Of a stretch of DNA of 64,000 nucleotides, positions 4,590 to 43,904 are shown one piece after another. The notes under the pieces were generated by a model. That model saw nothing but the letters and a program-made list of their open reading frames with translations. It did not search any database and was not told the DNA's origin. Numbering within the stretch: position 1 is the first letter of the stretch; every line of letters starts with the position of its first letter. The DNA comes from an uncultured Desulfobulbus sp. (GTDB lineage: Bacteria > Desulfobacterota > Desulfobulbia > Desulfobulbales > Desulfobulbaceae): assembly GCF_963665445.1 (NCBI RefSeq), contig NZ_OY762276.1, positions 776,001 to 840,000 on the forward strand, in the 5' to 3' direction. The position numbers and the translations under genes are program-made.

Positions 4590-4654
4590 TAAAATCGTCT
4601 GATTTATTTATAAAAGATGATTTATTATTAAATGTGTATATAATAAATAATTAT

Positions 4655-5389
4655 ATGAATAAAGAATATTTTTATAAAAAAATAAATGCTATTTTTTCAC
4701 TGTTTGGATTTAAAATAGTTAGAAATATTTCTGATGATCTAAGCATGGAGTCTATGATAAAGAGACTTTCGTTGCTTAACATTAACATTAATACAATAGT
4801 TGACATTGGTGCTTCTGATGGGAAGTGGAGCGTATCTTGTATGGATTATTTTCCACGGGCTCAATATTTGGCGATTGAACCTCTTGAGGAAAGAAAAGAG
4901 CCGCTTGAAGTTTGTAAATCTAGGTTTAAAAATTTTAATTACGCTCTGTGTGTGGCGGGGGATATTGATGGCGGAGAGGTGGGCCTTAAGGTTACAGAAG
5001 ACCTTGATGGGAGCACTATTGATGGGATCAATCAAGGCGTCTTAAGGTTGTGTCGAATGCGCTCGGTAGATTCATTGATTTCAGAGTTAAGTTTGCCTGG
5101 CCCCTATCTAATAAAATTTGATACTCATGGCTATGAAATTCCAATTCTTTCTGGGTGTAAAAAAATATTGCTGAATACTAATGCTATAATTATGGAGACT
5201 TATAATTTTGATATATCTCCAAAATCAATAATGTTTTATGAGATGTGTATCCACATGAATAAGTTGGGATTTAGATCTGCGAATTTGGCTAATCCAATGC
5301 TGCGGTTATATGATAAAATGTTCTGGCAGTGTGATATTTTATTTTTAAGAAATGATCATGAATCATTTTTTTATAGAAATTATAGATAA
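4655..5389 (+). CDS. FkbM family SAM-dependent methyltransferase
   Basis: About 244 residues. The SAM-binding motif I is IVDIGASDGKWS, then LAIEPLEE as motif II. SVDSLISEL and LIKFDTHGYEIPILSG form the FkbM signature region with the DxxG(Y/E)E acid motif. The family O-methylates small molecules and sugars, so capping or decorating the glycan is plausible. Start is ATG 4655; an in-frame GTG at 4634 is an alternative, and neither has a good Shine-Dalgarno. The TAA stop lies at the left boundary of the 402-bp element (element bases overlap the stop by about two), so the gene's 3' end may have been set by that insertion. AT-rich like the gene before it. Confidence 0.82.
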   Translation: MNKEYFYKKINAIFSLFGFKIVRNISDDLSMESMIKRLSLLNININTIVDIGASDGKWSVSCMDYFPRAQYLAIEPLEERKEPLEVCKSRFKNFNYALCVAGDIDGGEVGLKVTEDLDGSTIDGINQGVLRLCRMRSVDSLISELSLPGPYLIKFDTHGYEIPILSGCKKILLNTNAIIMETYNFDISPKSIMFYEMCIHMNKLGFRSANLANPMLRLYDKMFWQCDILFLRNDHESFFYRNYR

Positions 5390-5789
5390 GTCAAAGACCA
5401 CCGGCAAAGCCGGTGGCTTGAAAGACTGGGAGCCGCTCAAAGCGGCATATGCAACTGATCCACTGACCACCCTTGGTGGTCAAGTTGTTGGCAAGATCCA
5501 GCAATAAAATATCACGAGTTCGCATCTATTATCTTTCGATTCTGACTCTTGTTGTTTTGTGTGAGTATAAGCAAAAACTGATGCTCCGGTATTCGTTGAT
5601 CGATTCCTCATTGAAATCTGGGAATTAAGCATCAGAAAAAATTGTGTTGATTCTTGCCTATGCTCTTTGCATTGTTGATCTCAACAAAGACGATCAAGAA
5701 CGCAATCAATTGTTTCTTTTCTGCAATCCAGTAACCGTCAAACTGTTGGAGTCCCCCGGCAAAGCCGGGGGGTTACCCAAGGGAAATTA
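5388..5789 (+). repeat. 402-bp structured element, copy A (inverted partner at 43503-43904)
   Basis: This stretch is almost base-for-base the reverse complement of 43503-43904; by eye I find one substitution, in the G-run after the right hairpin. Both copies are 402 bp. It is packed with perfect stems: 5398-5416 (CCACCGGC/AAA/GCCGGTGG), 5432-5446, 5465-5481, a long-range 8-bp pairing 5578-5585 with 5628-5635, and 5753-5771 (CCCCCGGC/AAA/GCCGGGGG). The two subterminal hairpins share the core CCGGCAAAGCCGG in the same orientation and lie 10 and 18 bases from the ends. There are no terminal inverted repeats and no obvious target duplication. That layout recalls IS200/IS605-derived palindrome-associated or REP-type elements. 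It contains no convincing gene. Confidence 0.85.
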
Positions 5790-27551: not shown

Positions 27552-27578
27552 TTGTCCATAACTATTTTGAGGTCGCTC

Positions 27579-30500
27579 ATGAAGCTATTTCTTACTGTAT
27601 CCAGATTTTTGATGTTGTTGGCACTGCTGTCAATGGGGATACAAACCTCCATTGCCAATGCAACGGATTATACTATTAGCGTCAGCAGTGCAGCCCCGGT
27701 TGTCGAAGGAAGTACCACCGCAGTGGTTACGGTCAGCCTTTCACCGGCAGTTGCAACTGGAGAACAGGTGGCGATCTCATGGGCCACGGTTGATGGAACG
27801 GCAACTGCGGCGAGCGGAGACTACAACGCGGCAACGGGTACGCTCGTTTTCGATCCTGGCGATTCCGCCAAAAGCATCTCTGTCGCAGCGAATACGGATG
27901 GAACCGTCGAAAATAGCGAATCTTTGAAGATTCACGTTTCCAACCCGACCTTTGTTTCCGGAAGTGGTGTGTTGAGCGGTGACACAGATGTTGAACGGTC
28001 CGTAACAATTACTAATGTTGAGACAGCCACAGTAACCTTAAGTGGTGTGGTTGTCGATGGAACTGAGGGCACCTCGCTTTCTTATAAGATTGATCTCAGT
28101 AATCCGGTGGCAGACGATGTCGTTGTCAATTACTCCGTTGCGGGGAGTGGGACAGACGCTGCAGAGGGCACTGATTACACAAGTGGCAGTTCCGTCATCA
28201 TTCCTGCTGGCCAGACAACCTCTCTTATCCTCATCAATCTTGACGATGATCTTGTCGTTGAAAATGACGAAGAGTTGACAATCACCTTAGGTCCTCTCAG
28301 TTCGACCATCACTGCCGTGAGTTTGGGAAGTGCCACAACCGCAGTTGGCACAATTCGGGATAACGACAGCGCCAGTCTTTCGATCAACGATGTGAGTGTG
28401 GCTGAAAATGGCGGAAGCGTGAGTTTTACGGTGAGCTCGAGTGCAACCGTCGAATCGAGCGCCAGTGTGAGTTTCGATTATACAACTCAGGATGGCACCG
28501 CCACAGCCTCGGCCGATTACACGGCCCAAAGCGGAACAGGGACGATTTCAGGCGGCAACAGTACGGTTATTACCGTCCCGATTACCGATGATCTTCATGT
28601 TGAGGGGGCGGAGACTTTCACCTTGAAGCTCAGCAACTCGAGCAGCAACGCAAGCTTCAGCGATGACGAAGGCCTGGCGACGATCACGGATAACGACAGC
28701 GCGAGTCTTTCGATCAACGACGTAAGCGTGGCAGAAAATGGAGGCAGTGTAAGCTTCACGGTCACTTCGAGTGCGAGCATCGAACCGTCGGCGGGTGTCA
28801 GCTTTGATTTTGCCACCAGTGACGGCACCGCAGTCGCGCCTGGTGATTACACGGCCAGCAGCGGTACAGAGACCATTGCCAGCGGTACGAGCCAGACGAT
28901 CACTGTGCCCATTCAGGATGATGCAATTCTCGAGGGGAGTGAAACTTTTACCGTACAGCTGAGCAATCCGATCGGCGGAGTGAGCATCGCCGATAACGAG
29001 GGTGTTGCGACGATCACGGATAACGACAGTGCCAGCCTTTCGATCAACGACGTGAGTGTGGCCGAAAATGGAGGCAGTGTAAGCTTCACGGTCACTTCCA
29101 GCGCGCCTATCGAGCCTTCTGCGAGCGTGAGCTTCGATTTCACCACCAACGACGGCACCGCAGTCGCCCCCGGCGACTACACGACCAGCAGCGGTACAGA
29201 GACCATTGCCAGCGGTACGAGCCAGACGATCACTGTGCCCATTCAGGATGATGCAATTCTCGAGGGGAGTGAAACTTTTACCGTACAGCTGAGCAATCCG
29301 ATCGGCGGAGTGAGCATCGCCGATAACGAAGGTGTGGCGACGATCACGGATAACGACAGCGCGAGCCTTTCGATCAACGACGTGAGTGTGGCCGAAAATG
29401 GAGGCAGTGTAAGCTTCACGGTCACTTCCAGCGCGCCTATCGAGCCTTCTGCGAGCGTGAGCTTCGATTTCACCACCAACGACGGCACCGCAGTCGCCCC
29501 CGGCGACTACACGACCAGCAGCGGCACAGCGACCATTGCCAGCGGCACGAGCCAGAATATCACTGTTCCCGTGCAGGACGATGCGATTCTCGAGGGCAGC
29601 GAAACTTTTACCGTCAAGCTGAGCAACCCGAGCAGCGGTGTGAGCATCGCCGATAACGAGGGTGTAGGCACGATCACGGATAACGACAGCACCAGCCTCT
29701 CGATCAACGACGTAAGTGTGGCCGAAGATGGAACCAGTGCGACCTTTACGGTAACCTCGAGCGCCACCATCGAGCCTTCTGCGAGCGTGAGCTTCGACTT
29801 CACCACCAACGACGGCACCGCAGTCGCCCCCGGCGACTACACGACCAGCAGCGGCACAGAGACAATTGCCAGCGGAACGAGCCAGACGATCACTGTTCCT
29901 ATCCAGGACGATGCGATTCTCGAGGGCAGCGAAACCTTCAAGGTGCAGCTGAGCAACCCGAGCAGCGGTGTGAGCATAGCCGATAACGAGGGCGTGGCGA
30001 CAATCACGGATAACGACAGCGCCAGCCTTTCGATCAACGACGTAAGTGTGGCCGAGGATGGAGGCAGTGTAAGCTTCACGGTCACTTCCAGCGCGTCTAT
30101 CGAACCGTCGGCGAGCGTGAGCTTCGACTTCACCACCAACGACGGCACCGCAGTCGCCCTCGGCGACTACACGACCAGCAGCGGCACAGCGACCATTGCC
30201 AGTGGTACGAGCCAGAATATCACTGTTCCCATTCAGGACGATGCGATTCTCGAGGGGAGTGAAACCTTTACCGTCAAGCTGAGCAACCCGAGCAGCGGTG
30301 TGACGCTTGCCGATGATGAAGGTCAGGGTACGATCACGGATAACGACAGCACCAGCCTCTCGATCAACGACGTAAGTGTGGCCGAAGATGGAACCAGTGC
30401 GACCTTTACGGTAACCTCGAGCGCCACCATCGAGCCTTCTGCGAGCGTGAGCTTCGACTTCACCACCAACGACGGCACCGCAGTCGCCCCCGGCGACTAC

Positions 30501-33500
30501 ACGACCAGCAGCGGCACAGAGACAATTGCCAGCGGAACGAGCCAGACGATCACTGTTCCTATCCAGGACGATGCGATTCTCGAGGGCAGCGAAACCTTCA
30601 AGGTGCAGCTGAGCAACCCGAGCAGCGGTGTGAGCATAGCCGATAACGAGGGCGTGGCGACGATCACGGATAACGACAGCGCGAGCCTTTCGATCAACGA
30701 CGTAAGTGTGGCCGAGGATGGAGGCAGTGTAAGCTTCACGGTAACCTCGAGCGCCACCATCGAACCGTCGGCGGGTGTCAGCTTTGATTTTGCCACCAGT
30801 GACGGCACAGCCCTTGCGCCCGGTGATTACACCACCAGCAGCGGCACAGCGAACATTGCCAGTGGTACGAGCCAGAATATCACTGTTCCCATTCAGGACG
30901 ATGCGATTCTCGAGGGCAGCGAAACTTTTACCGTCAAGCTGAGCAACCCGAGCAGCGGTGTGAGCATCGCCGATAACGAGGGTGTGGGCACGATCACGGA
31001 TAACGACAGCACCAGCCTCTCGATCAACGACGTAAGTGTGGCCGAAGATGGAACCAGTGCGACCTTTACGGTAACCTCGAGCGCCACCATCGAGCCGTCG
31101 GCGAGCGTGAGCTTCGACTTCACCACCAACGACGGCACCGCAGTCGCCCCCGGTGACTACACCACCAGTAGCGGTACAGAGACAATTGCCAGCGGAACGA
31201 GCCAGACGATCACTGTTCCTATCCAGGACGATGCGATTCTCGAGGGCAGCGAAACTTTTACCGTCAAGCTGAGCAACCCGAGCAGCGGTGTGAGCATAGC
31301 CGATAACGAGGGCGTGGCGACGATCACGGATAACGACAGCGCGAGCCTTTCGATCAACGACGTAAGTGTGGCCGAGGATGGAGGCAGTGTAAGCTTCACT
31401 GTAACCTCGAGCGCCACCATCGAACCGTCGGCGAGCGTGAGCTTCGATTTCACCACAGCTGACGGCACAGCCCTTGCGCCCGGTGATTACACCACCAGCA
31501 GCGGCACAGCGACCATTGCCAGTGGTACGAGCCAGAATATCACTGTTCCCATTCAGGACGATGCGATTCTCGAGGGCAGCGAAACTTTTACCGTCAAGCT
31601 GAGCAACCCGAGCACCGGTGTGACGCTTGCCGATGATGAAGGTCAGGGTACGATCACGGATAACGACAGCGCGAGCCTTTCGATCAACGACGTAAGTGTG
31701 GCTGAGGATGGAACCAGTGCGACCTTTACTGTAACCTCGAGCGCCACCATCGAGCCTTCGGCGAGCGTGAGCTTTGATTTCACCACCAACGACGGCACCG
31801 CAGTCGCCCCCGGCGACTACACGACCAGCAGCGGCACAGCGACCATTGCCAGCGGCACGAGCCAGAATATCACTGTTCCCATTCAGGACGATGCGATTCT
31901 CGAGGGCAGCGAAACCTTTACCGTCAAGCTGAGCAACCCGAGCAGCGGTGTGACGCTTGCCGATGATGAAGGTCAGGGTACGATCACGGATAACGACAGC
32001 GCGAGCCTTTCGATCAACGACGTAAGCGTGGCCGAGGATGGAGGCAGTGTAAGCTTCACGGTCACTTCCAGCGCGCCTATCGAGCCTTCTGCGAGCGTGA
32101 GCTTCGACTTCACCACCAACGACGGCACCGCAGTCGCCCCCGGCGACTACACGACCAGCAGCGGCACAGCGACCATTGCCAGCGGCACGAGCCAGAATAT
32201 CACTGTTCCCATTCAGGACGATGCGATTCTCGAGGGCAGCGAAACCTTTACCGTCAAGCTGAGCAACCCGAGCAGCGGTGTGACGCTTGCCGATGATGAA
32301 GGTCAGGGTACGATCACGGATAACGACAGCGCGAGCCTTTCGATCAACGACGTAAGCGTGGTCGAGGATGGAGGCAGTGTAAGCTTCACGGTCACTTCCA
32401 GCGCGCCTATCGAACCGTCGGCGAGCGTGAGCTTCGACTTCACCACCAGTGACGGCACCGCAGTCGCCCCCGGTGATTACACGACCAGCAGCGGTACAGC
32501 GACCATTGCCAGCGGCACGAGCCAGACAATCACTGTTCCCGTGCAGGACGATGCTATTCTCGAGGGGAGCGAAACCTTCAAGGTGCAGCTGAGCAACCCG
32601 AGCAGCGGTGTGAGCATAGCCGATAACGAGGGCGTGGCGACGATCACGGATAACGACAGCGCCAGCCTCTCGATCAACGACGTAAGCGTGGCCGAGGATG
32701 GAACCAGTGCGACCTTTACGGTAACCTCGAGCGCCACCATCGAGCCGTCGGCGAGCGTGAGCTTCGATTTCACCACAGCTGACGGCACAGCCCTTGCGCC
32801 TGGCGACTACACCACCAGCAGCGGTACAGCGACCATTGCCAGCGGTACGAGCCAGACGATCACTGTTCCCGTGCAGGACGATGCTATTCTCGAGGGGAGC
32901 GAAACCTTCAAGGTGCAGCTGAGCAACCCGAGCAGCGGTGTGAGCATAGCCGATAACGAGGGCGTGGCGACGATCACGGATAACGACAGCGCCAGCCTCT
33001 CGATCAACGACGTAAGCGTGGCCGAGGATGGAACCAGTGCGACCTTTACGGTAACCTCGAGCGCCACCATCGAGCCGTCGGCGAGCGTGAGCTTCGATTT
33101 CACCACAGCTGACGGCACAGCCCTTGCGCCTGGCGACTACACCACCAGCAGCGGTACAGCGACCATTGCCAGCGGTACGAGCCAGACGATCACTGTTCCC
33201 GTGCAGGACGATGCTATTCTCGAGGGCAGCGAAACCTTCAAGGTGCAGCTGAGCAACCCGAGCAGCGGTGTGAGCATAGCCGATAACGAGGGCGTGGCGA
33301 CGATCACGGATAACGACAGCGCGAGCCTCTCGATCAACGATGTGACAGTTGCGGAAAATAGTGGGAATGCGGTCTTTACTGTGACTTCCAGCGTGACGAT
33401 CGAGCCGTCTGCCAATGCCAGTTTCAATTACTCGAGCTATAACGGAACTGCAGTCAATCCTCAGGATTACCTGATCTCCTTGGGCAGGGTGACCATTTCC

Positions 33501-36500
33501 AGTGGCACGAGCAAGACGATCCTGGTCCCTCTTCTTGATGATACTCTTCATGAGGGGAACGAAACTTTCACCGTAAAGTTGACTACCCCGAGCCCCGGCG
33601 TGAGTTTTGCCGATGACGAAGGTGAGGCCACGATTACGGACAACGACAGTACTATCCTCTCAATCAACGATGTGAGCGTGGCAGAGGATGGCGGGAGCGT
33701 GACCTTTACCGTAACTTCGAGCGCTACCATCGAGTCTTCGGCCAATCTCTCCTTTGACTTCACAACGGTGGATGGGACAGCTGTCTCTGCGAGTGATTAT
33801 GCGGCGTACACTGGTACAGGAGTCATTGCGAGCGGGACGACCGCTTCAGTAACGGTACCCATTCTCGATGACGTGGTAGTGGAAAGTCAGGAGCAGTTTT
33901 CGGTGCAGGTGACTGCGGCGCATAGTTCTGGAACTGCAAGTGTGAGCAGTACCCAGGGAAGCGGGCAGTGTACAATCAACGATAACGATTATGCGACACT
34001 TTCAATAGATGATGTCGCGCAGTACGAAGATGCTGGTCCCTTTGTTTTTACAGTAAAATCAAATTTGGTTGTTGCTCCGAACGCATCCATAACCGTTGAT
34101 TATGCGACCATAGATGGCACCGCCAAAGCGGGCAGCGACTATGTTGCACTTACAGGGACTGCCACCATAAGTGGTGGGGATAGCACGCCCCTGTCGGTTT
34201 CTGTTATCTCCGATAATAATACTCCCGAGTCCGATGAGATCTTCAATATTCAGTTATCGAATCCTTCGGCCCAGGTAAGCGGTTTTATCAAAGATGTAGG
34301 TGTGGGGACGATACTCAATGATGACTATCTGATTACGATTACCGATATTTCTCCTTTTGGATCAATAACCGAGACAACCGGGTTAGGTGTCACTCCCACC
34401 AGTGGAGATGTGAATTCGCTCGTTTATTCGCGTGGGAGCAGTCCCGTCTTTGAAATCAATGCGGAAATTCCCTGTCCGAATGGGTTGGGGCATAATGGCA
34501 AGTCGCACTCCATTTCAGATGTGTTGATAGATGGGACATCTGAAACGAGCGCAATCGGGCAATCGACGTATACCTATTCTTTCACAAGTATTTCGCAGGA
34601 TCATTCAATTGAGGCCCTTTTTACTTCGTATGTCGATTTTGATGTCGATGCGAATGGCCATATCGAGACTGGGTCCGGTAATGTTGCAGCTGGAAGCCAG
34701 GATTCAATAGAGGTTCAGGCAAATGCAACCCTCAAAGTTACCGCTGTCCCTGATTCTGGGTTTCATATATCGGATGTGCAAGTTGATGGGGTTTCGGTGG
34801 GTATACCCGAGACGTATTCTTTTGAAAATTGGATTGATGCGGATGCGACCTATAAAATTTTATTTGCCATAAATGATTTTGTCTTGGAGCCGGTGTCAAC
34901 CTACAAGACTATTTTCAATGATTCTGCAGAATCTGTCGTAGCGACAACAAAAACGATTACCTATGGCTCAAGCGGATCGTTTTATGTGAACCTCAATGAC
35001 TCTTCCTATGCTATTTACGGCATTCTCATCGACAACATCTCCTATCCCATTCCGGCCTCCGGGGTTGCGGTCAACTATACTGGTTTTACTTTGACCAATA
35101 CTGCCAACGATTATCTTGAAGTCAAGTTTCTGGCGGTCGATGCCAATCATCGGCTAGAAGTACAGGATTACGACACCAGCCCGATCTCAGACACACCTTT
35201 GGATGCCAAGTTGCGGCCAAAGCCTGCCGCTATCATGTTTGTTCTGGATGATTCCGGAAGTATGGATTGGGAGACGATCACCACTGATTCCGATGGACGG
35301 TACGGTGGAACGTATGAGTACGTGTATTCCTATCCTGATACTGTGAGAGCGAGGGTTTATGGAGATAATAGTCTGGAAAAATCTAACCAGCAGGCTCAAT
35401 GGCGGTCGCAATTCTTCGGGGTGAACAAGATGTTCTACAACCCCGGGGTTACCTACGTTCCCTGGCCAACGTTCACAGGTACACCTACTTCGCAACTTCC
35501 GGCAGTGGCTACCGATGGTCTGGCTCACGCCAATATCTATCGTCCCCGTTTTCATCCGTGGTACAGCCAGGACTGCACTGATGCGATCAACCTGGCCAAT
35601 GGGGTGACGACGGCCAATCTGAACAACTGTGATAACACTACCCAAAATACACACACCTTTCCCATGGATGATGTGTTTCTCGAGTACGAAGACAACACCG
35701 ACGCTATCATTGTTGACAACACGACTGCAGGGAGTTTTTCGACGAGCGGAAATTGGGGAACGTCCACAAATAGTGATATGTACGGCAGTAACTATCTGTA
35801 TACCATTAAGAATAAGCAACCGCACACTGCAACCTGGACGCTGTCGCCGACGAAGACGGCGACCTATCAGGTGTATACGCGGTGGGTCGATACGGCAGAT
35901 CGGCAGAACATCCCCTATACCATCAACTGTGCGAGCTGTGGCGGCGGCATCACGGTGAACATGGATCAGCGCTATCAAGGGGGAAAGTGGAACTCTCTGG
36001 GGGAATATTCCTTTACTGCAGGGGAAACTGTAACAATTAAACTGACGGATAATTTCAATCAAACTTCTTCGAGTTGTGCAGATGCTGTCAAGATTGTCCC
36101 CAAAGGGGACAGCATCAAGATACTGAATGCCCACTATTTTACCTGGGATGATGCCGATGGTGACGGCGAGATTGACTATGTCGATGCGGACTCCAATGGG
36201 CTGCTCGATAGAACCGAAACCATCACTGAGGATATTTACCTGGTCAACCTCTCCGATCCCGTTGAATACTACAAGGTTTTGAATAATTCTTCTGTCCTGA
36301 GTAGTACTAATTTGCAAGCCATCACTGCCGCAGCATTACCGTCAACAGTGGTGACCTTTGCCAGCCCAAGCGATGCTAATGCCTGGTTGAAAGAACGGCA
36401 GAATTGGTCTGATTGGTTCTCGTATTATCGAAAACGCACCCTTGCGGCCACAGGAGCTGTCGCGCGCGTTATCGACCAGATGGAGGATGTGGAGGTCGGT

Positions 36501-39500
36501 ATTCGTTCCATCAATGCAAGCAGCTCCTATGGTATTATCCAGTCCGTGCTGCCGGTCAATGTCGCAGGCGTCGGTGATGAAACTAATACCCTGCTGGCCA
36601 AGTTGTATAGCTTTCAGGTGGAAGGAAAAGGAACTCCGCTGCGTCAGGGGCTGCAGAAAGTAGGGCAGTATTTTGACGATACTGATTATGACAGTCTAGG
36701 GAAGCCTATTACTGGCGGTGTCGGCACCTCTCCGTACAATGCCAAAGAGGATGGCGATGAGTGCAAGCAGGTTTTTGCGGTGGTCATGACCGATGGCTAT
36801 TGGAATGGTTCAAACCCATCTCCTTCCGTGGGGAATGCCGATGGGAATAACGGGGCTCCCTATAGCGATGGATACTCCAACACCTTGGCCGATGTGGCGA
36901 TGTATTACTTTGAAAACGATCTGTCTTCCATGGATAACCTTGTTCCGGACGGTATTTACAACCACCAGCACATGGTAACCTATACCGTTGCTTTTGGTGT
37001 CTACGGGACGCTCAATCCCTCTGACTATGACTTTAACAAGTCGGTTTACCCCACCTGGCCCAGTCCGTGGGTTAACCCAACCGATGAGCATAAAATCGAC
37101 GATATGTGGCACGCGGCCGTGAACGGTCGCGGCAAGTACATGAGTGCTTCGCGTCCTGATGAGTTGGTCGACTCCTTACTTGATATTATGAATGATATTG
37201 GAACGCGGGTAGGTTCCGGCGCGTCCGTTTCGGTCAACGGCGACGAGATGTATGAGTCGGTCAGTGGCCAGACCCGTATGTTTCAGACCACCTACAACAG
37301 TGGAGACTGGCATGGTGATTTGAAATCCTACATGGTGGATACCACGACTGGCAATGTTGTGACCAACGCACCTGTTTGGTCGGCAGAAGATCAATTGGCA
37401 ACCAAGCTCACTGCCACGGGCACAGGGCATGTCAATCGTGTTATTGCCAGTTATAATGGAACCGCAGGTGTTGCCTTCAGGTGGGCAGACCTCTCAGCTT
37501 TGCAACAAAAGCAACTTTTTCCCTATTTTATCGAATCAACATCGACCACCTTGACCGGAGCAGATGTCGTCAACTACCTTCGTGGTTTGAAGACCTATGA
37601 AACCAGCAATACTGGTGGCGAATTCAGGGAGAGAGATGCCTCCCATCCCATAGGAGACATTGTCCACTCACTTGCCCGATACGAGGACGATGTCTTGTAT
37701 GTCGGTTCGAACGACGGAATGCTGCATGCATTTTTAGCAACGGATGCTGGGCTTGGCCAGGAACTTTTTGCCTATGTGCCGAATCTGGTCATGGGGAACC
37801 TGCGAGAGCTTGCCGATCCTGCTTATGATCATCTTTTTTATGTCGATAACACCCCTGATACCCAGGAAATGGGAAACTCGACCTACTTGGTTGCCGGCTT
37901 GGGGAAAGGTGGGAAGGGGTATTACTGCCTTGATATCACCAATGCCAAAACGGTGATAACCAGTGAGTCGACTTTGGCGTCCCGCGTGAAGTGGGAATAT
38001 CCCAGGGCTGATCTTGCCTTGGGTGGCGGCACCACCTACTCATTCGTGGCGGCAACCGTGGCAGGCGGCAACGATAGCATCTATGACAGCGCCAAGGGAT
38101 TTGCCAGCTCTTCCTATTATGTGGGGCAAACGATTTCTGTCTCCGGCGCTACTTCGAGCGGAGGATCCAATGATGGTATGTACACAATCAAAAGTATTGC
38201 CTCGGACGGTTCCTCTATTGAAGTCGCTTCAGGGAGTTTATCGACAGGGTACGGCAATGGCGCAACGGTCAGTTTGTCGGAGGCCTATGTCCTTCTGACT
38301 GGAAACACGTTTACCTTTTCCAGTGGGACGGGGACTGGTGGCAATGATGTCATTGCAGACAGCAATAGCGGATTCAGTCCTTCTATCTTTGCAGTGGGGC
38401 AGGTTATCTCGGTCATCGGCGCCAACTACGCCGATGGACTCAACAGCGGGACCAACGATGGGCAATATAAAATTACCAAGGTCGATTCGGCTGGAGGGTA
38501 TATCGAAATTCAGTCAGGGAGCCTGGTGACCGGCTATGGTAATCATAAAAATATCACCTTTACCAAAGCCAATATCGACCCCAAATTGGGCTATTCGTTC
38601 AGCAAGGCCTATTTTGTTGAAACCAACGACTTGTCGATCGGGTCCGGAGATTTGCAGGGATGGGTGGTTGTGTTTGGCAATGGCTATGGCTCGGAGAACG
38701 GGACGGCGATCCTCTATGTTCTCGATCCCTCAACTGGGGAGGTCATAAAACGTATCGAGACGGGCGTTGGTCCATTTAACGGATTGTCGACTCCGAATGC
38801 CATCGATGTGGATAACGATCTCAGGGTTGATTACGTCTATGCCGGTGACTTGCTGGGGAACATGTGGAAGTTCGATTTTACCTCCAGTAATCACGATGAC
38901 TGGCAGGTCGCCTATTGTGAGGGGGGCAACACCACCGATCATTGCAAGAGCACTGTTTCCGGGATTATTCCCAAACCGTTGTTTGCAGGGTTGAGCAATC
39001 AACCGATCACCGGTGCGCCCGATATCATGCGCCATCAATCTGGTGAGGGCTATATGGTTATCTTTGGCACCGGTAAATATGTGGGAGAGCCGGATCTTTC
39101 TTCCATATATACCCAGTCGCTCTACGGTATTTGGGATTGGGCCCCGGACTACCTGGATACCGGTTATAACGGAGCGCGTGTGGATGTGGGATCGACCTCG
39201 CCGCAGACGGCCACCCTGTCCAATTGGCCGGAGACGGATACAGCCGGCGATGCAACCCATACCCTGTTGCGCCAGGTTGCCTTGAGCGAGGGGTATTTAG
39301 ACACTGATGGTGATGGTGTTGTGGAGACTTCTTCCTATTACCGTAATATCTCTAATTATTCCGGGACCTATACGCTCACTCAAACCAGCAAATTGTCCGC
39401 AGGGCATCGTTTCCGGAACAAGGATATTAACGGTGATGGCAGTGTTGACGATAATGACCTCGTGCCGGATTCTAACGTTGGCTGGGTCTTTGATTTGCCC

Positions 39501-40019
39501 AGTAAAATTGATATTGATGGCGACGGTCAAGACAATGACAAGGACGGCACCATAGATGAGTCGGGTGAGCGTATCCCAGGTGAGCGTGTCGTCAATGACA
39601 CTGTGATTCGTGACGGCAAGGCGATTATTCTTTCCTTTGGCCTGACTGGAACACGCTGTAATTCCGGCGCCTATTCTTTCCTCAATGAGCGTGATGCCAA
39701 TACCGGAGGTATGACGTCTTCCGCTGTGTACGACTTGAACGGTGATGGCGAAATCGATGCCGATGATGGAGTGCAGATACAGGTCAATTACGATGCCAAC
39801 AACGACGGGAAGATAGACAGCAGTGATGTCATTACGGCCTACCCCTCAGATATCGCCTATGAAGGTCGTTTATATAACCCGGCAATTTTGCGGGAGAGCG
39901 ATGATTCGGACAAAGATCCGGAAGAGAAGAAATATTTCAGTACTTCCCAAGGGGCAATTATCGTTGTCAGTGAAAAGGCGGAAAAGCGAGGGTTTTCGTA
40001 CTGGCAGCAGATGGAGTGA
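27579..40019 (+). CDS. pilY1: Giant PilY1-type pilus tip adhesin with ~20 Calx-beta repeats
   Basis: 4,146 residues; ordinary PilY1 proteins have about 1,000-1,700. Order of parts: signal peptide (1-30); two divergent Calx-beta-like units (about 35-260); then 18 units of ~110 residues (264-2247) with SLSINDVSV starts and ILEGSETFTV cores; InlB/Bact-repeat-like segment (about 2250-2500); vWA with MIDAS VLDDSGSMDW (about 2551 on) and TDGYWNG; a golvesin-C-like insert (about 2690-2850) inside the vWA; PilC-type beta-propeller from DDVLYVGSNDGMLHAF (about 3370) with a duplicated ~75-residue insert (3486-3667); and EF-hand/dockerin-like loops such as DINGDGSVDDND and DLNGDGEIDADD near the C-terminus. 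ATG 27579 follows GAGG, 27 bases into the open frame. Location: pilus tip/outer surface. Calx-beta units bind calcium, so calcium-dependent stiffness or adhesion is likely. Confidence 0.9.
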   Translation: MKLFLTVSRFLMLLALLSMGIQTSIANATDYTISVSSAAPVVEGSTTAVVTVSLSPAVATGEQVAISWATVDGTATAASGDYNAATGTLVFDPGDSAKSISVAANTDGTVENSESLKIHVSNPTFVSGSGVLSGDTDVERSVTITNVETATVTLSGVVVDGTEGTSLSYKIDLSNPVADDVVVNYSVAGSGTDAAEGTDYTSGSSVIIPAGQTTSLILINLDDDLVVENDEELTITLGPLSSTITAVSLGSATTAVGTIRDNDSASLSINDVSVAENGGSVSFTVSSSATVESSASVSFDYTTQDGTATASADYTAQSGTGTISGGNSTVITVPITDDLHVEGAETFTLKLSNSSSNASFSDDEGLATITDNDSASLSINDVSVAENGGSVSFTVTSSASIEPSAGVSFDFATSDGTAVAPGDYTASSGTETIASGTSQTITVPIQDDAILEGSETFTVQLSNPIGGVSIADNEGVATITDNDSASLSINDVSVAENGGSVSFTVTSSAPIEPSASVSFDFTTNDGTAVAPGDYTTSSGTETIASGTSQTITVPIQDDAILEGSETFTVQLSNPIGGVSIADNEGVATITDNDSASLSINDVSVAENGGSVSFTVTSSAPIEPSASVSFDFTTNDGTAVAPGDYTTSSGTATIASGTSQNITVPVQDDAILEGSETFTVKLSNPSSGVSIADNEGVGTITDNDSTSLSINDVSVAEDGTSATFTVTSSATIEPSASVSFDFTTNDGTAVAPGDYTTSSGTETIASGTSQTITVPIQDDAILEGSETFKVQLSNPSSGVSIADNEGVATITDNDSASLSINDVSVAEDGGSVSFTVTSSASIEPSASVSFDFTTNDGTAVALGDYTTSSGTATIASGTSQNITVPIQDDAILEGSETFTVKLSNPSSGVTLADDEGQGTITDNDSTSLSINDVSVAEDGTSATFTVTSSATIEPSASVSFDFTTNDGTAVAPGDYTTSSGTETIASGTSQTITVPIQDDAILEGSETFKVQLSNPSSGVSIADNEGVATITDNDSASLSINDVSVAEDGGSVSFTVTSSATIEPSAGVSFDFATSDGTALAPGDYTTSSGTANIASGTSQNITVPIQDDAILEGSETFTVKLSNPSSGVSIADNEGVGTITDNDSTSLSINDVSVAEDGTSATFTVTSSATIEPSASVSFDFTTNDGTAVAPGDYTTSSGTETIASGTSQTITVPIQDDAILEGSETFTVKLSNPSSGVSIADNEGVATITDNDSASLSINDVSVAEDGGSVSFTVTSSATIEPSASVSFDFTTADGTALAPGDYTTSSGTATIASGTSQNITVPIQDDAILEGSETFTVKLSNPSTGVTLADDEGQGTITDNDSASLSINDVSVAEDGTSATFTVTSSATIEPSASVSFDFTTNDGTAVAPGDYTTSSGTATIASGTSQNITVPIQDDAILEGSETFTVKLSNPSSGVTLADDEGQGTITDNDSASLSINDVSVAEDGGSVSFTVTSSAPIEPSASVSFDFTTNDGTAVAPGDYTTSSGTATIASGTSQNITVPIQDDAILEGSETFTVKLSNPSSGVTLADDEGQGTITDNDSASLSINDVSVVEDGGSVSFTVTSSAPIEPSASVSFDFTTSDGTAVAPGDYTTSSGTATIASGTSQTITVPVQDDAILEGSETFKVQLSNPSSGVSIADNEGVATITDNDSASLSINDVSVAEDGTSATFTVTSSATIEPSASVSFDFTTADGTALAPGDYTTSSGTATIASGTSQTITVPVQDDAILEGSETFKVQLSNPSSGVSIADNEGVATITDNDSASLSINDVSVAEDGTSATFTVTSSATIEPSASVSFDFTTADGTALAPGDYTTSSGTATIASGTSQTITVPVQDDAILEGSETFKVQLSNPSSGVSIADNEGVATITDNDSASLSINDVTVAENSGNAVFTVTSSVTIEPSANASFNYSSYNGTAVNPQDYLISLGRVTISSGTSKTILVPLLDDTLHEGNETFTVKLTTPSPGVSFADDEGEATITDNDSTILSINDVSVAEDGGSVTFTVTSSATIESSANLSFDFTTVDGTAVSASDYAAYTGTGVIASGTTASVTVPILDDVVVESQEQFSVQVTAAHSSGTASVSSTQGSGQCTINDNDYATLSIDDVAQYEDAGPFVFTVKSNLVVAPNASITVDYATIDGTAKAGSDYVALTGTATISGGDSTPLSVSVISDNNTPESDEIFNIQLSNPSAQVSGFIKDVGVGTILNDDYLITITDISPFGSITETTGLGVTPTSGDVNSLVYSRGSSPVFEINAEIPCPNGLGHNGKSHSISDVLIDGTSETSAIGQSTYTYSFTSISQDHSIEALFTSYVDFDVDANGHIETGSGNVAAGSQDSIEVQANATLKVTAVPDSGFHISDVQVDGVSVGIPETYSFENWIDADATYKILFAINDFVLEPVSTYKTIFNDSAESVVATTKTITYGSSGSFYVNLNDSSYAIYGILIDNISYPIPASGVAVNYTGFTLTNTANDYLEVKFLAVDANHRLEVQDYDTSPISDTPLDAKLRPKPAAIMFVLDDSGSMDWETITTDSDGRYGGTYEYVYSYPDTVRARVYGDNSLEKSNQQAQWRSQFFGVNKMFYNPGVTYVPWPTFTGTPTSQLPAVATDGLAHANIYRPRFHPWYSQDCTDAINLANGVTTANLNNCDNTTQNTHTFPMDDVFLEYEDNTDAIIVDNTTAGSFSTSGNWGTSTNSDMYGSNYLYTIKNKQPHTATWTLSPTKTATYQVYTRWVDTADRQNIPYTINCASCGGGITVNMDQRYQGGKWNSLGEYSFTAGETVTIKLTDNFNQTSSSCADAVKIVPKGDSIKILNAHYFTWDDADGDGEIDYVDADSNGLLDRTETITEDIYLVNLSDPVEYYKVLNNSSVLSSTNLQAITAAALPSTVVTFASPSDANAWLKERQNWSDWFSYYRKRTLAATGAVARVIDQMEDVEVGIRSINASSSYGIIQSVLPVNVAGVGDETNTLLAKLYSFQVEGKGTPLRQGLQKVGQYFDDTDYDSLGKPITGGVGTSPYNAKEDGDECKQVFAVVMTDGYWNGSNPSPSVGNADGNNGAPYSDGYSNTLADVAMYYFENDLSSMDNLVPDGIYNHQHMVTYTVAFGVYGTLNPSDYDFNKSVYPTWPSPWVNPTDEHKIDDMWHAAVNGRGKYMSASRPDELVDSLLDIMNDIGTRVGSGASVSVNGDEMYESVSGQTRMFQTTYNSGDWHGDLKSYMVDTTTGNVVTNAPVWSAEDQLATKLTATGTGHVNRVIASYNGTAGVAFRWADLSALQQKQLFPYFIESTSTTLTGADVVNYLRGLKTYETSNTGGEFRERDASHPIGDIVHSLARYEDDVLYVGSNDGMLHAFLATDAGLGQELFAYVPNLVMGNLRELADPAYDHLFYVDNTPDTQEMGNSTYLVAGLGKGGKGYYCLDITNAKTVITSESTLASRVKWEYPRADLALGGGTTYSFVAATVAGGNDSIYDSAKGFASSSYYVGQTISVSGATSSGGSNDGMYTIKSIASDGSSIEVASGSLSTGYGNGATVSLSEAYVLLTGNTFTFSSGTGTGGNDVIADSNSGFSPSIFAVGQVISVIGANYADGLNSGTNDGQYKITKVDSAGGYIEIQSGSLVTGYGNHKNITFTKANIDPKLGYSFSKAYFVETNDLSIGSGDLQGWVVVFGNGYGSENGTAILYVLDPSTGEVIKRIETGVGPFNGLSTPNAIDVDNDLRVDYVYAGDLLGNMWKFDFTSSNHDDWQVAYCEGGNTTDHCKSTVSGIIPKPLFAGLSNQPITGAPDIMRHQSGEGYMVIFGTGKYVGEPDLSSIYTQSLYGIWDWAPDYLDTGYNGARVDVGSTSPQTATLSNWPETDTAGDATHTLLRQVALSEGYLDTDGDGVVETSSYYRNISNYSGTYTLTQTSKLSAGHRFRNKDINGDGSVDDNDLVPDSNVGWVFDLPSKIDIDGDGQDNDKDGTIDESGERIPGERVVNDTVIRDGKAIILSFGLTGTRCNSGAYSFLNERDANTGGMTSSAVYDLNGDGEIDADDGVQIQVNYDANNDGKIDSSDVITAYPSDIAYEGRLYNPAILRESDDSDKDPEEKKYFSTSQGAIIVVSEKAEKRGFSYWQQME
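28368..33317 (+). repeat. Tandem 330-bp Calx-beta-encoding repeats
   Basis: Fifteen units of exactly 330 bp (unit 1 from 28368 more divergent; units 2-15 from 28698 to 33317 nearly identical). Further diverged units follow to about 34320. Two alternating unit types (AEDGTSATFTV and AEDGGSVSFTV) give a 660-bp higher-order period between about 29688 and 31700. Confidence 0.92.
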
Positions 40020-43502: not shown

Positions 43503-43904
43503 TAATTTCCCTTGGGTAAACCCCCGGCTTTGCCGGGGGACTCCAACAGTTTGACGGTTACTGGATTGCAGAAAAGAAACAATTGATTGCGTTCTTGATC
43601 GTCTTTGTTGAGATCAACAATGCAAAGAGCATAGGCAAGAATCAACACAATTTTTTCTGATGCTTAATTCCCAGATTTCAATGAGGAATCGATCAACGAA
43701 TACCGGAGCATCAGTTTTTGCTTATACTCACACAAAACAACAAGAGTCAGAATCGAAAGATAATAGATGCGAACTCGTGATATTTTATTGCTGGATCTTG
43801 CCAACAACTTGACCACCAAGGGTGGTCAGTGGATCAGTTGCATATGCCGCTTTGAGCGGCTCCCAGTCTTTCAAGCCACCGGCTTTGCCGGTGGTCTTTG
43901 ACTT
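43503..43904 (-). repeat. 402-bp structured element, copy B (inverted relative to copy A)
   Basis: Reverse complement of 5388-5789, with the same length and, by eye, one difference (the third base after the right stem). It lies between the two amtB operons with no gene interrupted. Its flanks on both sides differ from those of copy A, which fixes the boundaries to within one or two bases. The same five hairpins are present. No target duplication is evident. Confidence 0.85.

What the first reader, a model, noticed from the sequence alone, without database searches (positions are those of the whole stretch)
5388..5789. 402-bp near-identical, highly structured element present twice in inverted orientation 38 kb apart
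The stretch 5388-5789 is the reverse complement of 43503-43904, differing at one base by my reading. Flanks diverge sharply. Both ends have subterminal hairpins sharing the core CCGGCAAAGCCGG with AAA loops, in the same orientation, and several more perfect stems lie between. This fits an IS200/IS605- or RAYT-mobilised palindrome element with no transposase of its own, or a mobile structured RNA. Near-identity says recent movement or ongoing gene conversion. I do not recognise it as a named family.
Basis: partly seen in the sequence, partly recalled or inferred. Interest (0 to 1): 0.82.

Follow-up and report, generated by a model that had tools for sequence, protein, structure and literature searches.

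The report
Transposase-free hitchhiker of an IS200 element
This is a short piece of mobile DNA with no transposase gene of its own that carries the hairpin ends of a small bacterial jumping gene (IS200) and has recently been copied to many places in one Desulfobulbus-like chromosome, apparently moved by that element's enzyme; it is a clean example of a known kind of element.

Summary
The genome holds 15 near-identical copies, differing pairwise at 0-4 positions. Their ends match IS200-type insertion sequences of the same genome that encode a Y1 transposase, TnpA; the middle 230-245 bp is unrelated to tnpA. The mobile unit is 396 bp (5389-5784 and 43508-43903). The outer 5 bases at the left end, TAATT on the IS strand (TGATT and TAACT in one copy each), are target sequence; the other end always finishes TGACT. 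One copy splits an HD-GYP gene; removing exactly 396 bp restores the frame and aligns to four congeners with no gap at the junction, so nothing is duplicated. Two intact tnpA genes of the same subgroup could act in trans; no PF07282 TnpB match was found. This is a homogeneous PATE (palindrome-associated transposable element) of an IS200 element: a new member of a known kind. The interior was found nowhere else (0 of 256 other genomes of the order), so its origin is open; it folds only modestly better than background. 11 of 15 copies have the active strand on the lagging-strand template, in the expected direction but not significant. All 15 lie in 36% of the chromosome around the terminus, unexplained.

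The parts
5389..5784 (-). PATE copy 1, 396 bp; the strand given is the IS (tnpA-sense) strand
   Evidence: 15 copies; boundaries from conserved and variable flanks and from the empty site of another copy, L003
5389..5481 (-). IS200-type right end (RE), 80-85% identical to REs of tnpA-bearing elements of this genome and of congeners; ends TGACT
5397..5417 (-). RE subterminal hairpin GCCACCGGC-TTT-GCCGGTGGT
5432..5446 (-). second RE stem GCCGCT-TTG-AGCGGC; the same stem-loop region is present in the tnpA-bearing elements
5464..5482 (-). third RE stem TGACCACC-AAG-GGTGGTCA, at the place just after the tnpA stop codon in the full IS
5483..5728 (.). interior of about 230-245 bp, 37% GC, no similarity to tnpA, no Pfam match above cut-off in the three frames tested, not found outside this genome
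5729..5784 (-). IS200-type left end (LE), 87-95% identical to LEs of tnpA-bearing elements
5753..5771 (-). LE subterminal hairpin CCCCCGGC-TTT-GCCGGGGG
5772..5772 (.). private base of this copy, directly 5' of the LE hairpin foot on the IS strand (probable guide position)
   Evidence: the other 14 of 15 copies carry the alternative base
5785..5789 (-). target pentamer TAATT flanking LE, not part of the element
   Evidence: TAATT in 13 of 15 copies, TGATT in 1, TAACT in 1
43508..43903 (+). PATE copy 2, 396 bp; IS strand is +
43503..43507 (+). target pentamer TAATT flanking LE of copy 2
   Evidence: L004
43508..43563 (+). LE of copy 2
43811..43903 (+). RE of copy 2, ends TGACT

Best explanation
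The element is a homogeneous PATE: a non-autonomous derivative of a resident IS200-type insertion sequence. It keeps the LE and RE hairpins, their flanking guide regions and the cleavage site, while the tnpA gene and its leader are replaced by about 245 bp of unrelated, apparently non-coding DNA. Mechanism: TnpA made by an intact IS200 copy elsewhere in the genome binds the LE and RE hairpins on one DNA strand when that strand is single, typically on the lagging-strand template. It cuts after the TAATT-like pentamer that flanks LE and after TGACT at RE, closes the element into a single-stranded circle, and inserts it 3' of another TRAYT pentamer without target duplication. Shown here: the copies, the boundaries, the shared ends, intact tnpA genes, one empty site. 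Inferred from the known mechanism of the family: that TnpA acts in trans, the single-stranded circle, the role of the guide bases.
For: 15 copies at 99-100% identity, 0-4 pairwise differences within 396 bp. Both ends match the three complete or nearly complete IS200 elements of this genome first found (RE 80-81%, LE 87-88%; L017, L018, L020) and those of congeners (L078, L079: RE 85%, LE 93-95%). The LE hairpin is identical in the five tnpA-bearing elements aligned and the RE hairpin in four of those five, the fifth (L069) having one loop change. TnpA is Y1_Tnp (Pfam E 1e-38), matches solved transposases including ISHp608 (E 2e-20), and has HVH and YxxxQ. Complete tnpA in L070 and L071. RE ends TGACT in 15 of 15; LE flank TAATT 13, TGATT 1, TAACT 1 of 15. 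Copy L003 interrupts an HD-GYP gene; excising 396 bp restores the frame (Pfam HD_5 E 6e-35). Against the four foreign homologues fetched, the 396-bp excision aligns with no gap in two and, in the other two, with gaps at least 90 bases from the junction, whereas excising 402 bp adds 6 gap bases in each of the four. 11 of 15 copies have the IS strand on the lagging template.
Against: The PATE ends are closer to IS200 elements of congeners (L078, L079) and to broken copies in this genome (L072, L073) than to the two intact resident copies, so the mobilising TnpA may have been lost or be a cousin. The strand bias is not significant (one-sided p 0.059). The crowding of all 15 copies into 0.70-2.52 Mb (1 of 200,000 uniform simulations as extreme) does not follow directly from the mechanism. 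Only one empty site was shown; a second attempt (copy L010) found no homologue in 6 genomes.
Confidence: 0.93

Rival explanations
1. A mobile structured RNA: the interior encodes a functional non-coding RNA and the IS200 ends merely spread it.
For: The interior folds better than shuffles on the + strand: z -3.67, 0 of 200 shuffles as good; my script gave -2.77 and -2.95, 1 and 2 of 200. The interior is full-length in all 15 copies with few substitutions.
Against: In a run with 40 shuffles its z was -2.47 and 22 of 200 GC-matched segments of the same genome were as low; the - strand is weaker (z -2.48; -2.02). No Rfam match in the window. No relatives in 256 other genomes of the order, hence no covariation test. 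Identity of the copies is explained by recent spread.
Confidence: 0.05
2. A REP/BIME-like repeat spread by a domesticated RAYT (TnpA-REP) transposase.
For: Hairpin ends and a Y1 enzyme are shared features; one longer, divergent Y1 frame exists in the genome (L030, 224-aa frame, 33.8 bits), not examined further.
Against: The element is 396 bp with distinct LE and RE shared with tnpA-bearing IS copies of the same genome; the partner enzyme has the IS200-type YxxxQ arrangement (class features from passages of PMC6006769).
Confidence: 0.01
3. Copies kept identical by ongoing gene conversion among old insertions rather than by recent transposition.
For: Near-identity alone does not separate the two.
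Against: Copies are dispersed with unrelated flanks, and at least one site is empty in four congeners and disrupts a gene, so insertion is required there; 0-4 differences fit recent spread.
Confidence: 0.03

Closest known systems
Homogeneous PATEs of Haloquadratum walsbyi (PMC3119063, passages seen)
   Same: Too short for a transposase; near-terminal palindromes like those of IS605-type elements; no terminal inverted repeats; no target duplication; a 4-5 bp targeting sequence at the 5' end; several copies with high full-length identity.
   Different: The host is a Desulfobulbus-like bacterium, the likely parent is a solo-tnpA IS200 element in a genome without a PF07282 match, and the interior is not a recognisable remnant of the parent.
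IS200/IS605 elements IS608 and ISDra2 (mechanism from passages of PMC6006769; the pentamer of ISDra2 is recalled, from no call)
   Same: Subterminal hairpins, a target oligonucleotide flanking LE, RE ending in a similar oligonucleotide, lagging-strand preference.
   Different: No tnpA inside; the target here is TRAYT, a pentamer, rather than the tetranucleotide of IS608.
tnpA-truncated relatives: Desulforhabdus sp. TSK L118, L129, L141; ends-only L140 in a Spirochaetaceae MAG
   Same: Share the exact 28-base LE stretch and lack a complete tnpA; RE ending TGACT found in L118, L129 and L140.
   Different: The Desulforhabdus copies keep the 3' part of tnpA and their RE hairpin differs; L140 has only a short spacer between the ends. 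None has the interior of the window element.
PATE-like element of Halanaerobium hydrogeniformans (PMC7290912, passages seen)
   Same: Ends-only IS605 derivative in a bacterium, thought to be movable in trans.
   Different: Single copy, keeps the tail of tnpB; not a spread homogeneous set.

Membership tests
PATE (palindrome-associated transposable element) | Too short to code for a transposase | tested here: met
   396 bp; no Pfam match above cut-off in three interior frames; no similarity of the interior to the tnpA-bearing loci compared
PATE (palindrome-associated transposable element) | Palindromes near both ends, related to those of an IS200/IS605 transposon | tested here: met
PATE (palindrome-associated transposable element) | No target duplication | tested here: met
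   empty site of copy L003 against four congener homologues; one of 15 copies tested
PATE (palindrome-associated transposable element) | No terminal inverted repeat | tested here: met
   the ends read TCCCTTGGG... and ...TGACT on the IS strand; the hairpin regions are direct repeats, and the two inverted repeats reported are internal
PATE (palindrome-associated transposable element) | Mobilised in trans by a Y1 TnpA | not testable with these tools
   complete tnpA present in L070 and L071; activity needs an experiment
IS200/IS605 insertion sequence (autonomous) | Carries its own tnpA | tested here: not met
   no tnpA similarity in the interior; present in partners L070, L071
IS200/IS605 insertion sequence (autonomous) | Inserts 3' of a fixed tetra- or pentanucleotide | tested here: met
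   TRAYT in 15 of 15 copies
REP/BIME of RAYT | Mobilised by a class 2 TnpA-REP (YxxxNP context) | tested here: inconclusive
   the partner TnpA has YxxxQ; the possible RAYT-like frame L030 was not examined
Rfam non-coding RNA | Match to a curated family | tested here: not met
   0 matches in the window at gathering score

The most novel reading that the evidence does not exclude
An IS200 element whose tnpA gene and leader were swapped, right up to the point after the stop codon, for a 245-nt folded non-coding cargo of unknown origin that is itself useful (an RNA, or a single-stranded DNA structure favouring transposition), and that spreads preferentially around the replication terminus.
Probability: 0.1. 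Interest if true: 0.6.

Novelty: new member of a known kind. Interest (0 to 1): 0.3.

Why it matters
It gives a well-bounded, recently spread PATE in a bacterium, with intact candidate helper genes and a shown empty site, so trans-mobilisation by a solo IS200 transposase can be tested directly. Natural variants (two altered target pentamers, and one change beside the LE hairpin foot in the window copy) are ready-made tests of target recognition. The interior of unknown origin suggests that such elements can carry cargo that is not a remnant of the parent.

Tried and rejected
Origin of the interior: searched as DNA in 72 other genomes of the family and 256 others of the order (only 3 candidates scored per genome, so less sensitive than with up to 10), as one exact 24-mer in genome contigs and viral contigs, and inside the full-length query in plasmids (2 records, listed best places cover the RE only) and phages (none). 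warn that the window's own or a very near genome may be left out. No source was found.

Protein-coding interior: three stop-to-stop frames against Pfam gave nothing above cut-off (best DUF1363, E 0.076, 13.8 bits against a cut-off of 24.2). Not supported.

Functional RNA: z-scores differ between the tool (+ strand -3.67, - strand -2.48) and my script (+ strand -2.47 with 40 shuffles; -2.77 and -2.95 with 200; - strand -2.03 and -2.02). Against 200 GC-matched segments of the genome, 22 were as low as the + strand and 37 as low as the - strand. Not adopted.

TnpB relation: no PF07282 match in the genome (6 of 14 control genomes rang), so not pursued. PF01385 was not searched.

Second empty site (copy L010, DUF1858-type gene): no homologue in six congeners; inconclusive.

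Local hopping: three neighbour gaps under 20 kb, p 0.037 against uniform but 0.36 given the occupied arc; four gaps under 50 kb, p 0.10. Not supported beyond the arc-wide crowding.

L083 (congener) was first taken for a deletion-derived PATE. It is a copy with most of tnpA deleted that also lacks the terminal RE hairpin, so it is a remnant, not a PATE.

Full report
Observation. The two stretches are reverse complements with one difference. The whole genome (one contig, 5.08 Mb; window = C1:776001-840000) gave 32 matches: 15 near-full copies at 99-100% identity and 17 shorter ones to the ends only (40 of 51 candidates scored). All other 14 copies share one base against the window copy at 5388 (window position 5772), so that base is private to it. 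Within the 396-bp unit the other 14 copies differ from it at 1-3 positions; over all 105 pairs the differences are 0-4, mean 1.05, with 7 distinct sequences. This is a dispersed, recently spread repeat.

Partners. Several end-only matches come in pairs about 650 bp apart. The 143-aa product of L070 is Y1_Tnp (E 1e-38) and matches solved transposases including ISHp608; it has HVH and YIRDQ, the YxxxQ context that PMC6006769 gives for class 1, IS200-type enzymes (passages). On the IS strand the LE is the 5789 side and the RE the 5388 side. In the first subgroup L070 (the query) and L071 (98% amino-acid identity) are complete; L068 is frameshifted, L069 broken, L072 and L073 fragments. A second subgroup has four complete copies with 66-69% identical proteins (L021-L024); the ends of the two elements viewed (L076, L077) differ from ours. 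No PF07282 (TnpB-type) match was found.

What the element kept and lost. Alignment with five tnpA-bearing elements shows about 60 nt of LE and 94 nt of RE in common. The common RE begins just after the tnpA stop codon. Everything between, the tnpA leader and the gene, is absent and replaced by 230-245 bp (37% GC in the 230 bp measured) without similarity to tnpA.

Boundaries and target. On the IS strand every copy ends TGACT at RE (15 of 15). The five bases next to LE read TAATT in 13, TGATT in 1 and TAACT in 1 of 15; the variation lies in the flank pentamer, as expected of a target that is not part of the element. TGACT also closes the RE of other elements of this genome and of congeners (L068-L071, L076, L078-L081), while L086 reads TTACT. 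Copy L003 lies inside a gene; taking out 396 bp gives a continuous HD-GYP frame (HD_5 E 6e-35). Of 23 genomes of the genus, 5 including the own one matched this protein at E 1e-50. Against all four foreign homologues the 396-bp excision aligns across the junction: no gap in L162 and L163, and in L164 and L165 gaps only at least 90 bases away. A 402-bp excision adds six gap bases in each of the four. So the net insert is 396 bp and nothing is duplicated. Copies L010, L012 and L014 also lie within or at the end of longer reading frames. The window copy starts at the last base of the stop codon of an FkbM-type methyltransferase gene (4634-5389), and the empty site would still read TAA.

Distribution. 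In the genus, 14 of 23 genomes match, the own one included; in the other 13 only the ends match. Interior alone: 0 of 72 other genomes of the family, 0 of 256 others of the order (fewer candidates scored), no exact 24-mer in genome contigs or viral contigs, nothing in phages, and only RE matches listed in 2 plasmid records. An exact 28-base LE pattern has 26 loci in genome contigs: 23 under sulfate-reducer or 'Deltaproteobacteria' names, 8 of them Desulfobulbus, 2 in spirochaete MAGs and 1 in a Synergistaceae MAG. Of these 26, tnpA matches over positions 1-142/143 in 9 and 5-143 in 1, in part in 6, not at all in 4, and 6 hold too little DNA to tell. Desulforhabdus L118, L129 and L141 keep only the 3' part of tnpA; L140 has two ends with a short spacer. 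None of the 26 has our interior. L082 in a congener has similar ends, with an imperfect RE hairpin, around another interior, once at full length in its genome. This suggests, without proving, that elements of this kind arose more than once.

Replication. GC skew from 40 sampled stretches changes sign between 1.83 and 1.87 Mb (terminus) and between 4.25 and 4.33 Mb (origin); 4 of the 40 stretches have the other sign from their half. With the terminus at 1.85 Mb, 11 of 15 copies carry the IS strand on the lagging-strand template (one-sided p 0.059). This is the direction known for IS608 and ISDra2 (PMC6006769 passages) but not significant. All 15 copies lie between 0.70 and 2.52 Mb; 1 of 200,000 uniform simulations had so large an empty arc. 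That test was chosen after seeing the data. The first-subgroup IS copies and fragments (L068-L073) also lie in that arc at five of six places, the exception being L068 at 0.02 Mb; the second subgroup lies at 2.41, 3.81, 3.97 and 4.53 Mb.

Folding. As single-stranded DNA the whole element has z -5.9 and -5.1. The interior alone as RNA has z -2.48 (- strand) and -3.67 (+ strand) by the tool and -2.02 and -2.77 to -2.95 by script. In a background run 22 of 200 GC-matched genome segments were as low as the + strand value found there and 37 as low as the - strand value.

Known kind. PMC3119063 (passages) describes PATEs as transposase-free elements without terminal inverted repeats, with near-terminal palindromes related to IS605-type elements and no target duplication; those with over 90% full-length identity are called homogeneous. 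PMC7290912 (passages) describes a bacterial PATE-like sequence and PMC4853749 (passages) mentions PATEs. The element meets every sequence criterion tested; mobilisation in trans is inferred. The searches did not list a report of this element; they do not prove that none exists.

Name of the host. 

Noticed in passing
window 27552-40019 (+): A 4155-aa protein with 19 Calx-beta stretches, a Golvesin C-terminal domain and a PilY1 beta-propeller: a very large pilus-tip-like adhesin.
   Followed up: partly
own genome C1, 0.70-2.52 Mb: All 15 copies, and five of six first-subgroup IS200 loci, crowd into 36% of the chromosome around the replication terminus; cause unknown.
   Followed up: partly
L071 1027-2975: A tnpA-bearing IS200 copy whose RE is split by another insertion of about 1.95 kb with a 558-aa reading frame that looks like a transposase by eye.
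   Followed up: partly
L082 344-790: A PATE-like element in a congener with similar ends and a different interior, once at full length in its genome.
   Followed up: partly
L140: An ends-only element with the same LE and RE hairpins in a Spirochaetaceae MAG, pointing to transfer between phyla or to a binning error.
   Followed up: no
L084 about 688-734: A long near-perfect palindrome built on the LE hairpin in a congener.
   Followed up: no
L030 (G000:C1:3653411-3653779): A longer, divergent Y1 transposase-like frame (224 aa, 33.8 bits) that could be a RAYT.
   Followed up: no
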